From a virus, in the IMG/VR virus record IMGVR_UViG_3300046675_000234, positions 17,692 to 81,691 of that record: a stretch of 64,000 bases of DNA; one strand, given 5' to 3'. A program made the position numbers and the translations under genes. This document shows, one piece after another, positions 12,900 to 55,263 of this stretch (positions are counted from its first letter, which is position 1; each line of letters begins with the position of its first letter). The notes below the pieces were generated by a model that searched no databases, was not told the origin of the DNA, and was given only the letters and a program-made list of their open reading frames with translations.

Positions 12900-12905
12900 G
12901 CATGA

Positions 12906-12937
12906 CGAAGGCCCCGCACGCAGGTGCGGGGCCTTCG
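12906..12937 (-). terminator. Strong hairpin terminator
   Basis: Perfect 14-bp stem (CGAAGGCCCCGCAC with GTGCGGGGCCTTCG) and a 4-nt loop, between the exported-protein gene ending at 12990 and the small terminase. There is no long T tract, which is normal for high-GC actinobacterial terminators. It separates the exported-protein unit from the packaging operon. Confidence 0.8.
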
Positions 12938-12989
12938 CAAAGCCGCCGGATCATTCCGCCCCCCGGTGCGGGCGGCGGCGGCTAGTTCC

Positions 12990-45593: not shown

Positions 45594-46820
45594 ATGGGAT
45601 ATCCGCAAGGACCGCCTCAGCAAGGACCGCCGCCGGGACAGGGCGGATGGCAGCAGGGCCAGGGCGGCTGGCAGCAGCCACCCCAGGGCGACCCGTACGC
45701 CCAGCAGCAGGGCGGCTTCACGCCGTTCCAGGGCGGCCAGCCGATGGGCGGCAGCGCGGGCGGCTACGACTGGAACACGCTGTACGGCCAGGCCGACCAC
45801 ACCGTTGGCCAGCTCGTTGACGCCGGTCTGTACACCGCGATCGTCAAGGCATCGGACTGGGACCGGACCAAGGACGGCAGCAAGGGGGCCTGGACCATCA
45901 CGTTCATCCTGACCAGCGGTCCCCGGCCTGGCATGAAGCAGGTCATGACCATGGCGGTCAGCCCGAAGACCAACAAGGGCGAGGACAACCCCGAGGGCAT
46001 GGGCCGGATGTTCCGGCAGCTCGCGGCGATGGGCATCCCGGTGCCGCCGCCGTACGGCCAGCAGGGCTGGTGGCAGCTCGGCTGGAACGAGCAGCAGGTG
46101 GGCCAGGCCATGGTCGGCCACCCGGTCCTGCTCCAGCTCATCCACGACGAGTACGAGGGCGTCACCCGGAACAAGGTGCGCGACATCCAGCCGCCGCCGC
46201 CCGGAGCCCCGACCCAGATGCCGCAGATCGCCCAGCAGCAGCAGCAGCAGGGCTTCGCCCCGCCGCAGGGCCAGCAGTGGCAGGCCCCGCCGCAGCAGGC
46301 CCCGCAGCCCGGCGGTGCCCCGGCACCGTGGCAGCCGCCGCAGCAGCAGCCGCAGCAGCAGCCGCAGTTCGAGGGCCAGGGCTACGGCCAGGGCTTCGGG
46401 CAGCAGCAAGGCCCGCCGCCCGGCTACCAGGGCCAGCCCCAGCAGGGTCCGCCGCCCGGCTACGGCCAGCAGCAGCAGCAGCAGCAGGGACCGCCTGCTG
46501 GCTACCAGCAGCCGCCGCAGGGCTATGACCCGAACGTCCCGCCGTACGCCCAGCAACCGAACCCCGGCGCACCGGGTGCGCAGCAGTTCACCGGCCAGGG
46601 CCAGGCGTGGCAGTCGTCCGTCAACCCCGCCCAGGAGCAGCAGGCCGCGCAGCAGATGGGCCAGCAGCAGCCACCGCAGCAGCAGCCGTGGGCAAACCCG
46701 AACGGTATGCCCGGCCAGCAGCAGCAGGGCTACGCTCCGCAAGGCCAGCAGCCGCAGCAGGGCGGCGAGCAGGGTCCGCCGCAGGCTCCGGGCTGGGCAG
46801 GCGGCCAGCCGCAGCAGTAA
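45594..46820 (+). CDS. SSB-like protein with very long Gln/Gly/Pro tail
   Basis: 408 aa. Residues 1-57 are Gly/Gln/Pro-rich. A folded core (about 62-200) reads VDAGLYTAIVKASDWDRTKD, TITFILTSGPRPG, and MGRMFRQLAAMGIP, resembling phage OB-like ssDNA-binding/DUF669 proteins. Residues 200-408 are a low-complexity tail dominated by Gln, Pro and Gly with repeated QQGPPPGY-type units and runs of Gln. Bacterial SSBs have such tails, but rarely of 200 residues. Sits after Sak4, the standard partner position. The tail may drive condensates or recruit partners. Confidence 0.78.
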   Translation: MGYPQGPPQQGPPPGQGGWQQGQGGWQQPPQGDPYAQQQGGFTPFQGGQPMGGSAGGYDWNTLYGQADHTVGQLVDAGLYTAIVKASDWDRTKDGSKGAWTITFILTSGPRPGMKQVMTMAVSPKTNKGEDNPEGMGRMFRQLAAMGIPVPPPYGQQGWWQLGWNEQQVGQAMVGHPVLLQLIHDEYEGVTRNKVRDIQPPPPGAPTQMPQIAQQQQQQGFAPPQGQQWQAPPQQAPQPGGAPAPWQPPQQQPQQQPQFEGQGYGQGFGQQQGPPPGYQGQPQQGPPPGYGQQQQQQQGPPAGYQQPPQGYDPNVPPYAQQPNPGAPGAQQFTGQGQAWQSSVNPAQEQQAAQQMGQQQPPQQQPWANPNGMPGQQQQGYAPQGQQPQQGGEQGPPQAPGWAGGQPQQ

Positions 46821-46861
46821 GACCAACTGACAGCCATCCCAACACAACAGAAGGAAGAACG

Positions 46862-47653
46862 ATGCAGATAACCCGAACCGAGGTCCCCACCGGGACCGAG
46901 GACCGGACCCGGCGCGAGACCATCGTGCCGCTGAACACCGGCACGCGCGAGGTCGAGCCCGAGATGTACCTGGACTGCTCCGAGTCCGAGGGCTGGCCCT
47001 GGAACAGCCTGCCAGCCGTCAACACCTGGTCTGTCCAGATCGAGGCCGTGCGCGGCTTCATCGTGCCGTTCGAGGTGCTGGACTCCCAGGCCGCAGCCGA
47101 GCAGGCCGGGGGTGACGATGACAAGGGCGGCGTCTACTGCTACCCCTTCAGCAACGCCTTCCTGCCGATCGGTGACGGCGACGATGACGGGGACCTGAAC
47201 AGCTCCAATTTCGATGAGAAGATGACCGCGTTCGCCGCCAAGTACTTCGGCGGCGACGGCCTGCCGCGCGGCGGCACCGAGGCCATGACCGCGATCCTGG
47301 CGGGCGATGACCACTTCATGGGCGAGTTCCGCGACGACCCGCGCGACGAGCGGCCGGTGCGCGCCCGCGTGATGTGGACGGACGGCAAGCTCAACGACGC
47401 GCCGAAGTTCCAGCGCTACCTCGGCCAGGCCACCGTCACCGATGAGGGCTACGGCTCCCACGGCGACTGGGACGAGGTGTGGGCGGTCGCCATCCTGGGC
47501 GAGCCCGGCGGCGGCGGCAAGGCTGCCTACCAGCAGTACGTCGATCTGGCCAAGACCCACCCGTGGATACACGCCTACTATTTCGAGGGCGTGACCAACC
47601 CGGCCGAGGTCGCGGAGGACATGGCCGTCGCGGTGGTGCCCACCGCCGCATGA
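46862..47653 (+). CDS. von Willebrand A-like domain protein
   Basis: 263 aa from the ATG at 46862 (AAGGAAGAACG RBS). YLDCSESEGWPWNS contains DxSxS (Asp38-Ser40-Ser42), the MIDAS metal site. Later RARVMWTDGKLND and VWAVAILGE are the typical central strands. Actinophages often have such a vWA protein after recombination genes; its partner is unknown (an MoxR-type ATPase is not seen here). Confidence 0.8.
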   Translation: MQITRTEVPTGTEDRTRRETIVPLNTGTREVEPEMYLDCSESEGWPWNSLPAVNTWSVQIEAVRGFIVPFEVLDSQAAAEQAGGDDDKGGVYCYPFSNAFLPIGDGDDDGDLNSSNFDEKMTAFAAKYFGGDGLPRGGTEAMTAILAGDDHFMGEFRDDPRDERPVRARVMWTDGKLNDAPKFQRYLGQATVTDEGYGSHGDWDEVWAVAILGEPGGGGKAAYQQYVDLAKTHPWIHAYYFEGVTNPAEVAEDMAVAVVPTAA

Positions 47654-47654
47654 A

Positions 47655-47950
47655 GACGTGACCGGCTGTAGCGAGGCTGGCTGAGAATATACCGCTGATG
47701 TGCACCGAGCGCTTGCACCACGGGAGCGCACACGAACACGAGTAGCGGGTGTCACCCGGTCGCCAGCCGGTCACTTAGCTGCCCCGCAGGCTCTCTGAAT
47801 GCGCGCGGGATACCGGCCCCGATGTAATCAGGGGGGTGCTGGTCCCCGACTAGGCACAACCTGCGGGGGCGTCAGCCGGGAACGGAAGACCACGGCTGGC
47901 GCTGCCCGGCCCCTGCGAGATTCACGGGATCAATCGGGGGCCGGGCACCG
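47655..47950 (+). ncRNA. Candidate structured RNA, about 300 nt
   Basis: Noncoding gap of about 400 nt with three strong stems in a row. Stem 1: GTGACCGGCTG (47658-47668) with CAGCCGGTCAC (47764-47774), 11 bp perfect around 95 nt that can fold further. Stem 2: GCCCCGCAGG (47781-47790) with CCTGCGGGGGC (47860-47870), 10 bp and one bulged G. Stem 3: GCCCGGCCCC (47904-47913) with GGGGCCGGGC (47937-47946), 10 bp perfect. No tRNA or tmRNA features. Could be a long 3' UTR, an attenuator or a new phage RNA. Confidence 0.4.
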
Positions 47951-47975
47951 GCATGTCTGGAATAGATCCATGGCC

Positions 47976-47990
47976 TGGGGTGTTTACACC
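47976..47990 (+). promoter_or_regulatory. Promoter/operator with full GGTGTTTACACC palindrome
   Basis: TGGGGT followed by GTTTACACC, so the full 12-mer GGTGTTTACACC is present. A short GGGC/GCCC hairpin and ACGATGAGGAA lead to the DUF932 gene. Confidence 0.65.
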
Positions 47991-48051
47991 ATCGTAGGGC
48001 CGCAACAGCAGCCCGGATCAAAATGTCAGACCCGACAGAGACGATGAGGAA

Positions 48052-49074
48052 ATGTCACAGGAAACCAGCGAGTGGCTGAACAGGTACACCCTGATCGGCT
48101 TCACCGACAAGCGCGACAAGGCATGGCACTACCGCGAGAGCGCGCAGGGCGCAGAGCCCAACCACTATCCCGGCGAGATCCCGGTGGCCGACATCAACCG
48201 CCGCCTGTTCGACTGGGAGCCCGCGATCGGCACGTCCGAGTCCACCTGGGCCGACGCCGATGGCAAGACCCGGAAGACCACCTGGCAGGACCGGATCACC
48301 CTGATCCACCCGCACACCGGCTTCCGCCTCGGTGAGTTCACCGATGGCTTCACCCCGCACAGCTACCGCGAGTGGCTGGTCAAGCTCAGCCAGGACGTCA
48401 TGGACTCCGACGTCGGCGCAAGCTCGGCAGGACTGCTGAAGGGCGGCAAGCTCGCCTGGGTGCAGTTCGAGCTGCCCGAGACGCTGGACACGCCGCAGGG
48501 CGTCAAGTACCGGCCGTTCTTCCTGGCCGCCGACTCGCTCGACGGGTCGCTGAGCACCACGCACCAGCGCGGTATCCAGCTCGTTGTCTGTGACAACACC
48601 CTGGCTGCGGGCCTGGCCGAGGGCAACGCCCTGAAGGTCAAGACCCGGCACAGCAAGTACTCCAACGCCAACATCGGTGACGTCCGCGCCAAGCTGGACA
48701 TCATCTACCAGGCGGGCGACGACTTCGCCGCCGAGGTGGACAAGCTCACCTCGACCGCCGTCAGCGACACCCAGTGGGACGAGTTCCTGAAGGCCCACCT
48801 GGGCGAGCGCCCGGAGGACAAGGGCCGTGGGCAGACCAACTACGACAACCGGCGCGATGAGCTGACCAACCTGTGGGACAACGACATGCGGGTAGCCCCG
48901 TGGGCCAACACCGCGTTCGGAGTACTCCAGGCAGTCAACACCCACGCGCACCACATCCAGACCGTGAAGGGCGCAGGCCGCGCCGAGCGGAACATGACCA
49001 AGATGGTGACCGGCGAGTTCGAGAAGCTGGACGCTGCCACCCTCGACCAGCTCAACCTGGTGCTCGCAGCCTGA
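48052..49074 (+). CDS. DUF932 phage/plasmid protein
   Basis: 340 aa. LVVCDNTLAAGLAEGNALKV with RHSKYSNANIGD, then AVNTHAHHIQTVKGAGRAER and NMTKMVTGEFEKLDAATL at the C-terminus, match the DUF932/TIGR03299 phage-plasmid family. Copies lie in accessory regions of many phages and plasmids; the biochemical role is unknown. Well-formed leader and RBS; single-gene unit between two palindrome sites. Confidence 0.86.
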   Translation: MSQETSEWLNRYTLIGFTDKRDKAWHYRESAQGAEPNHYPGEIPVADINRRLFDWEPAIGTSESTWADADGKTRKTTWQDRITLIHPHTGFRLGEFTDGFTPHSYREWLVKLSQDVMDSDVGASSAGLLKGGKLAWVQFELPETLDTPQGVKYRPFFLAADSLDGSLSTTHQRGIQLVVCDNTLAAGLAEGNALKVKTRHSKYSNANIGDVRAKLDIIYQAGDDFAAEVDKLTSTAVSDTQWDEFLKAHLGERPEDKGRGQTNYDNRRDELTNLWDNDMRVAPWANTAFGVLQAVNTHAHHIQTVKGAGRAERNMTKMVTGEFEKLDAATLDQLNLVLAA

Positions 49075-49079
49075 TCTAG

Positions 49080-49094
49080 TAGGCTGATTACACC
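49080..49094 (+). promoter_or_regulatory. Promoter/operator TAGGCT-GATTACACC
   Basis: TAGGCT just after the DUF932 stop, followed by GATTACACC (one-base variant of the site). An 11-bp perfect hairpin with a TACG loop (49098-49123) follows, then GTTAGGAGGCG and the HTH gene. Confidence 0.6.
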
Positions 49095-49097
49095 AGG

Positions 49098-49123
49098 GGG
49101 CCAGGCGGTACGCCGCCTGGCCC
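49098..49123 (+). promoter_or_regulatory. Leader hairpin with UACG loop
   Basis: GGGCCAGGCGG pairs with CCGCCTGGCCC around TACG: 11 bp, a stable UNCG-class loop. It lies in the 5' leader of the 49145 gene, directly after the promoter; it may protect mRNA or terminate upstream transcription. Confidence 0.65.
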
Positions 49124-49144
49124 TCGGGCCGTTAGGAGGCGGTT

Positions 49145-49450
49145 ATGCAAGAGGCCGGGGTCAAGCCCGAAGCGGCGTGGCGCTCGGCTGTCTCGTTTAC
49201 CAAGCTGGCTGAGCTGCTCAGCGCGCATTACGGGGAGACGATCACCCGCCAGCGGGTGTATGAGTGGTGGAAACGGGAGACGAAGAACGCGGCCGGGCAG
49301 GTGTTCCCGCGCGAGGTGCGCGGGGTACCTGACGCGCCGCTCAACCGGCCGAGCCGCCACTTTGACTACAGCCAGGTGCTGACCTGGACCACGCACGGGG
49401 TGCCAGCCCGCTACGGTAACGGCTGGCGACAGCTAGGTAGCCGGGAATAG
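49145..49450 (+). CDS. Helix-turn-helix protein, 101 aa
   Basis: FTKLAELLSAHYGETITRQR followed by VYEWWKRETKN is a MerR/excisionase-like HTH. The remaining part is basic and aromatic. RBS AGGAGGCGGTT. A small DNA-binding regulator; it could be the protein that reads the palindromes, which flank it on both sides. Confidence 0.75.
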   Translation: MQEAGVKPEAAWRSAVSFTKLAELLSAHYGETITRQRVYEWWKRETKNAAGQVFPREVRGVPDAPLNRPSRHFDYSQVLTWTTHGVPARYGNGWRQLGSRE

Positions 49451-55009: not shown

Positions 55010-55149
55010 AGCGCACACGGTACCGGTTCACCGGGCAGCACGCGGGCCGGTACTACTGGCAGAGCGTGCTGCCGGTGTCGCCAGGTGACTCGCGGTACGA
55101 GCAGATCAGTTGCCCGGTGAGCTGGTTCTGGGGCGGAATAAAAGCCTGA
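55006..55149 (+). CDS. Small Tyr/Trp-rich protein, 47 aa
   Basis: MKRTRYRFTGQHAGRYYWQS then a beta-rich end with CPVSWFWGG. ATG overlaps the previous stop (ATGA). Aromatic-rich, probably a small beta fold. Last gene of the unit. Confidence 0.6.
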   Translation: MKRTRYRFTGQHAGRYYWQSVLPVSPGDSRYEQISCPVSWFWGGIKA

Positions 55150-55151
55150 GC

Positions 55152-55166
55152 TGGAGTGTTTACACC
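55152..55166 (+). promoter_or_regulatory. Promoter/operator TGGAGT-GTTTACACC
   Basis: TGGAGT and GTTTACACCAG lie 2 nt after the previous stop. A large leader structure follows (see 55181) and then ACGATGAGGAAG of the 55264 gene. Confidence 0.63.
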
Positions 55167-55180
55167 AGTGTAAGACAAAA

Positions 55181-55244
55181 GCGCGGGACCGGGGTCACGA
55201 CCCCAGCACGGACCTGGGCGCAACGACAGATGCCGGTCCCGCGC
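55181..55244 (+). promoter_or_regulatory. Long leader stem-loop
   Basis: GCGCGGGACCGG (55181-55192) pairs perfectly with CCGGTCCCGCGC (55233-55244): 12 bp around a 40-nt loop, which includes a second hairpin GGGGT/ACCCC that partly competes with the outer stem. The competition makes a two-state switch possible. Confidence 0.6.
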
Positions 55245-55263
55245 CCCAGACGATGAGGAAGCA

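What the first reader, a model, noticed from the sequence alone, without database searches (positions are those of the whole stretch)
47655..47950. Possible new structured phage RNA
Three successive long stems (11, 10 and 10 bp, two of them perfect) cover nearly 300 noncoding nt between the vWA and DUF932 genes, unlike the single hairpins in other gaps. Inner sequences can form more pairs. No tRNA, tmRNA or known riboswitch features are visible to me.
Basis: seen in the sequence. Interest (0 to 1): 0.66.

Follow-up and report, generated by a model that had tools for sequence, protein, structure and literature searches.

The report
Hairpin cluster between two phage genes
Between two genes of an uncultured, probably actinobacterial, phage lies a roughly 300-base noncoding stretch of four consecutive stem-loops, one holding a probable pseudoknot; it is real and conserved in two close relatives, and most likely forms the folded tail end of one message just before the control site of the next, rather than a proven new RNA class.

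Summary
The observation largely holds. The 398-nt gap (47654-48051) is noncoding and folds far better than shuffles (z -4.5, 0/100). It carries four tandem stem-loops, not three: D1 (11 bp plus a probable inner H-type pseudoknot), D2 (9 bp with conserved internal loops), hp3 (10 bp) and hp4 (11 bp). Nothing in Rfam matches. Only two relatives were found, both uncultured phage contigs. D1 recurs in one of them behind a different gene (model E 1.5e-12), always starting 0-2 nt after a stop codon; stems are conserved while loops diverge (p 5e-8). Two compensatory pair changes support the pseudoknot, but three sequences cannot give a significant covariation test. D2 is nearly invariant; hp3 and hp4 are missing from the more distant relative. 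Directly downstream lies a 33-bp repeat (6 copies in the window, none expected by chance), a likely promoter/operator. I read the block as a 3'-UTR hairpin cluster that ends and shields the upstream transcript before the next regulated unit, as described for high-GC bacteria, with D1 and D2 more elaborate than a terminator needs. A separate phage noncoding RNA is possible but unproven. GOLLD, ROOL, tmRNA and tRNA are not supported.

The parts
   Evidence: 67% identical relatives L009-L012 are followed by a terminase gene and a short hairpin gap instead
47656..47776 (+). domain D1: outer stem P0 (47658-47668/47764-47774), inner stem P1 (47692-47696/47744-47748), probable H-type pseudoknot
   Evidence: homologues in L004 and at a different locus in the L005 contig
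47700..47729 (+). probable pseudoknot core of D1: stem A GUGC/GCAC (47700-47703/47715-47718), stem B GCGCU/AGCGC (47709-47713/47725-47729), loop CACGGG
   Evidence: compensatory U-A to A-U in A and C-G to G-C in B in L004; both stems kept in G002a
47782..47868 (+). domain D2: 9-bp stem CCCCGCAGG/CCUGCGGGG with conserved internal loops CUCUCUGAAUGCGC and GACNNGGCACAA around a variable hairpin
   Evidence: 33 of 35 loop positions identical in L005 versus 77-82% at fourfold sites
47869..47902 (+). hairpin hp3, 10 bp with one G-U pair; loop shrunk in L004, absent in L005
47903..47947 (+). hairpin hp4, 11-bp perfect GC-rich stem, no U-tract after it; absent in L005
47959..47991 (+). 33-bp repeat GGAATAR-N14-GTGTTTACACCA, likely promoter/operator of the next unit
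   Evidence: 6 copies in the window, all + strand, 0 expected; also in both relatives
47997..48015 (+). short leader hairpin after the repeat (GGGCCGC..GCAGCCC), followed by ACGATGAGGAA before the start codon
   Evidence: similar leader hairpins follow several of the other copies
48052..49074 (+). downstream DUF932 gene (phrog_1221)
   Evidence: the other family members checked lack the structured block upstream

Best explanation
The block is the transcribed 3' untranslated region of the upstream gene, built as a tandem cluster of four stem-loops starting 4 nt after the stop codon. As the nascent RNA leaves RNA polymerase the GC-rich stems fold one after another; they slow or end transcription and shield the 3' end of the upstream message from exonucleases, so that the DUF932 unit is driven by its own promoter/operator (the 33-bp repeat) placed just behind the cluster. 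D1, with its pseudoknot, and D2, with its conserved loops, are more elaborate modules that probably also bind a protein or block an RNase. Shown: position, noncoding character, stems, conservation, module gain and loss, the repeat. Inferred: transcription, termination, protection, and any binding partner.
For: D1 starts 0-2 nt after the stop codon in all three copies, behind two different genes. Hairpins are spaced 7, 0 and 0 nt apart, within the <15-nt spacing of the hairpin clusters tied by RNA-seq to termination, which are commoner in high-GC genomes and need no poly-U tail (PMC8355165). No U-tract follows any hairpin; other gaps of this phage also carry single GC hairpins without U-tracts. 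The 33-bp repeat follows at once. hp3 and hp4 are lost in L005, as expected for redundant stems.
Against: In the L005 contig D1 sits directly before the upstream gene with no 33-bp repeat after it, so a full terminator there would silence that gene. A plain terminator does not explain the conserved D2 loops (33/35) or a pseudoknot kept by compensatory changes. A mycobacterial polymerase has been reported to need a U-tract (Czyz 2014, seen only in the reference list of PMC8355165). No transcript data exist.
Confidence: 0.45

Rival explanations
1. D1, or D1 plus D2, is a stand-alone phage noncoding RNA (processed from the 3'UTR or separately transcribed) that acts in trans or binds a protein through its pseudoknot and conserved loops.
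For: D1 is an independent module found at another locus; stems conserved over loops, p 5e-8 (1e-4 without P0); two double compensations; D2 loops nearly invariant.
Against: No promoter-like site found by the simple scan upstream; only three genomes; compensation is weak alone (P 0.03 for random placement, 0.20 for random identity; an unbiased helix scan gave P 0.39).
Confidence: 0.25
2. The modules act at DNA level: palindromic, REP-like or recombinogenic elements that insert behind stop codons and shuffle between intergenic sites.
For: D1 is present or absent at exact post-stop positions in related phages; the D1 core looks exchanged in L004 (31/44 identity in the core, 71/74 in the flanks, fourfold sites 94-96%).
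Against: Only one copy per genome, unlike REP families; compensatory changes in nested and crossing stems are better explained by RNA.
Confidence: 0.15
3. Leader regulator (riboswitch, attenuator) of the DUF932 gene, or an RNA-based replication origin as in some parABS mycobacteriophages.
For: Lies upstream of DUF932 in the same direction; RNA-based prophage origins exist in actinophages (PMC7157519).
Against: The 33-bp repeat lies between block and gene; D1 lies away from DUF932 in the L005 contig; no Rfam riboswitch match; no par gene was seen among the proteins scanned (not an exhaustive search); most DUF932 relatives lack the block.
Confidence: 0.08
4. A chance by-product of GC-rich noncoding sequence.
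For: Other gaps reach similar z-scores.
Against: z -4.5; conservation of D1 and D2 in L005 although fourfold sites are only 77-82% identical.
Confidence: 0.07

Closest known systems
Hairpin-cluster intrinsic terminators of high-GC bacteria (PMC8355165)
   Same: Several tandem hairpins close behind a stop codon, spaced under 15 nt, no U-tail
   Different: Here one module holds a probable pseudoknot and another has conserved internal loops; the cluster reaches 294 nt from the stop, slightly past that study's 270-nt scan; no termination data
GOLLD and ROOL large phage-associated RNAs
   Same: Structured noncoding RNA in phage genomes
   Different: Far smaller and simpler; no Rfam score; not conserved beyond three genomes
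SAS/ESAS repeats of cluster K and palindromic repeats of cluster O mycobacteriophages (PMC3203893, PMC4351075)
   Same: Comparable to the 33-bp repeat next to the block: short conserved repeats between genes of the non-structural arm
   Different: Different sequence; ours is set back from the start codon and carries a GTGTTTACAC palindrome; they are not like the structured block itself
RNA-based prophage origins (PMC7157519)
   Same: Noncoding RNA locus in actinophages
   Different: Those lie next to parABS; no par genes seen here

Membership tests
Hairpin-cluster terminator | Tandem hairpins less than 15 nt apart just behind a stop codon | tested here: met
   first stem 4 nt after the stop; spacings 7, 0, 0 nt
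Hairpin-cluster terminator | Transcript 3' ends at the cluster | not testable with these tools
   no RNA-seq or Term-seq available
Classical U-tract intrinsic terminator | GC hairpin followed by a U-run | tested here: not met
   no + strand terminator-like site in 46800-49200
Any Rfam family (including GOLLD, ROOL, riboswitches, ribozymes) | Score above the gathering threshold | tested here: not met
   none in the window; lax matches are far below each family's gathering score, mostly miRNA models
tRNA or tmRNA | ARAGORN detection | tested here: not met
   0 genes
New covarying structured RNA family | Statistically supported covariation over many diverged homologues | tested here: inconclusive
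   three sequences; two compensatory pairs in D1, no informative covariation in D2
RNA-based prophage origin | Noncoding RNA next to parABS that supports replication | not tested
   no par gene seen among the proteins scanned, not exhaustive; replication untestable here

The most novel reading that the evidence does not exclude
D1 is the first seen member of a new class of modular, pseudoknot-bearing phage RNA placed at stop codons, whose core is exchanged between phages while its closing stem is fixed, hinting at an interaction partner under diversifying selection.
Probability: 0.15. Interest if true: 0.6.

Novelty: new variant of a known kind. Interest (0 to 1): 0.33.

Why it matters
If the block only ends or protects a transcript, it is a clear example of how GC-rich phages may separate transcription units without U-tracts. 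If D1 proves to be a separate RNA, it would be a small mobile RNA module tied to stop codons, a kind not in Rfam. Either way it gives a compact, testable model: D1, D2 and the repeat can each be moved into a reporter.

Tried and rejected
Rfam at gathering and at lax thresholds, for the window and both relatives: only chance matches. blastn against cultured phages with the gap, D2, the D1 core and the G002a copy: nothing meaningful. Pattern scans of viral contigs for the D2 loops, D1 core and D1 closing stem: only the known relatives plus L041, L042 and L077, judged chance (L077 lies in a helicase-like ORF, L042 appears to lie in coding sequence, L041 lacks stem A). The G004 match is likewise judged chance. 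Genome contigs: D2 pattern none, upstream protein none. DUF932 and upstream-gene relatives in IMG/VR and cultured phages: structured block absent. Relation of hp3 to the first hairpin of the L005 gap dropped, because the shared CAGCCGG word is among the commonest 7-mers. Coding reading of ORF 47799-48047 rejected: indels in L004. Stop-codon read-through rejected by inspection: in-frame stops follow within a few codons in all three copies.

Full report
Setting. The window is part of an 81,691-base uncultured virus record. Terminase, portal, polymerase, helicase, exonuclease and Sak4-like genes mark it as a tailed phage; the nearest cultured DUF932 relatives are phages of Rhodococcus, Gordonia, Mycobacterium, Streptomyces and Microbacterium at less than 50% identity, so an actinobacterial host is likely but not shown.

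Observation. The gap 47654-48051 lies between two co-directional genes. It folds at -193.3 kcal/mol, z -4.51, 0 of 100 shuffles as good. Four stems follow one another: P0 of D1 (11 bp), D2 (9 bp), hp3 (10 bp with one G-U) and hp4 (11 bp). Only 4 of 216 equal tiles in the window have as many perfect inverted repeats. Other gaps are also well folded, notably 55010-55263 and 12900-12989 (gene calls there were rough), so the region is unusual but not unique.

Relatives. IMG/VR holds two close relatives: L004/L007 (34,872-base contig; proteins 98-99% identical) and L005/L008 (80,594-base contig; 87-90%). L004 keeps all four modules, with one-nt and 11-nt indels, which argues against coding. L005 keeps D2 and the 33-bp repeat but lacks hp3 and hp4, and has a different 15-bp hairpin in place of D1. 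D1 itself is found in the L005 contig about 1 kb upstream (copy G002a), directly behind the stop codon of the preceding gene; a model built only from the window and L004 finds it at E 6e-12 to 1.5e-12. More distant relatives of either flanking gene lack the modules.

Structure of D1. In a hand alignment of three copies the 25 proposed pairs are kept in nearly all cells; between the window and G002a only 2 of 50 stem positions differ against 34 of 71 loop positions (p 5e-8; p 1e-4 without P0). Inside P1, two short stems cross to form an H-type pseudoknot: GUGC/GCAC and GCGCU/AGCGC with the loop CACGGG. L004 changes both stems with compensation (U-A to A-U, C-G to G-C). This is suggestive, not conclusive: random placement of as many substitutions keeps as many pairs with P 0.03, random identities at the same sites with P 0.20, and an unbiased two-sequence helix scan gave P 0.39. 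The stem A alignment involves gaps placed by hand. The core of D1 differs more between the window and L004 (31/44 identical) than fourfold-degenerate sites do (94-96%), while its flanks are 71/74 identical; the pattern of which sequence is odd also switches between core and flanks. Exchange of the core by recombination, or fast change under selection, would both explain this.

Structure of D2. The closing stem and internal loops are nearly invariant (33 of 35 loop positions in L005, with fourfold sites at 77-82%). The inner fold is unresolved: the window's minimum-energy fold is a three-way junction, that of L005 a simple hairpin with a large internal loop. RNAalifold finds no useful covariation.

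Surroundings. A 33-bp repeat, GGAATAR-N14-GTGTTTACACCA, lies at 47959-47991 and five more times in the right arm, all on the + strand, none expected by chance, and also in both relatives. Several copies overlap the stop codon of the gene before and are followed by a short leader hairpin and an ACGATGAGGAA ribosome-site-like stretch. This fits a phage-specific promoter or operator, which would place the hairpin block in the 3' untranslated region of the upstream transcript.

Mechanism. The best-supported reading is a hairpin cluster that ends and shields the upstream message. RNA-seq-based work reports such clusters close behind stop codons, more often in high-GC genomes and without U-tails (PMC8355165). 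That reading is inferred: no transcript data exist here, and a need for a U-tract has been reported for mycobacterial polymerase. The intra-operonic D1 of the L005 contig and the conserved D2 loops suggest that these two modules do something beyond termination, such as RNase blocking or protein binding.

Verdict. A real, conserved, lineage-restricted structured region; a new family cannot be claimed on three sequences. Novelty: a new variant of a known kind (3'-UTR hairpin cluster) with an unusual pseudoknot module.

Noticed in passing
47959, 49444, 51045, 51804, 55135, 56081 (+ strand, 33 bp each): Repeat GGAATAR-N14-GTGTTTACACCA between genes of the right arm, several copies overlapping the upstream stop codon and followed by a leader hairpin; likely a phage-specific promoter/operator. 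Perhaps the more interesting regulatory feature of this genome.
   Followed up: partly
55010-55263: Another strongly folded gap (z -4.6) with a 12-bp stem 55181-55244 between a 33-bp repeat and the next start codon; L004 keeps the stem with changes.
   Followed up: partly
12906-12937: 14-bp perfect GC-rich hairpin between genes, without a U-tract, a probable terminator.
   Followed up: no
L013-L016, just downstream of the upstream-gene homologue: Terminase gene appears interrupted after 'NGKNPVQ' by an intein-like start (CSMDILTTNGWTTIGEIQPGQ).
   Followed up: no
45594-46820: Glutamine/proline-rich 408-aa protein with tandem repeats, next to a Sak4-like gene; weak PHROG match only.
   Followed up: no
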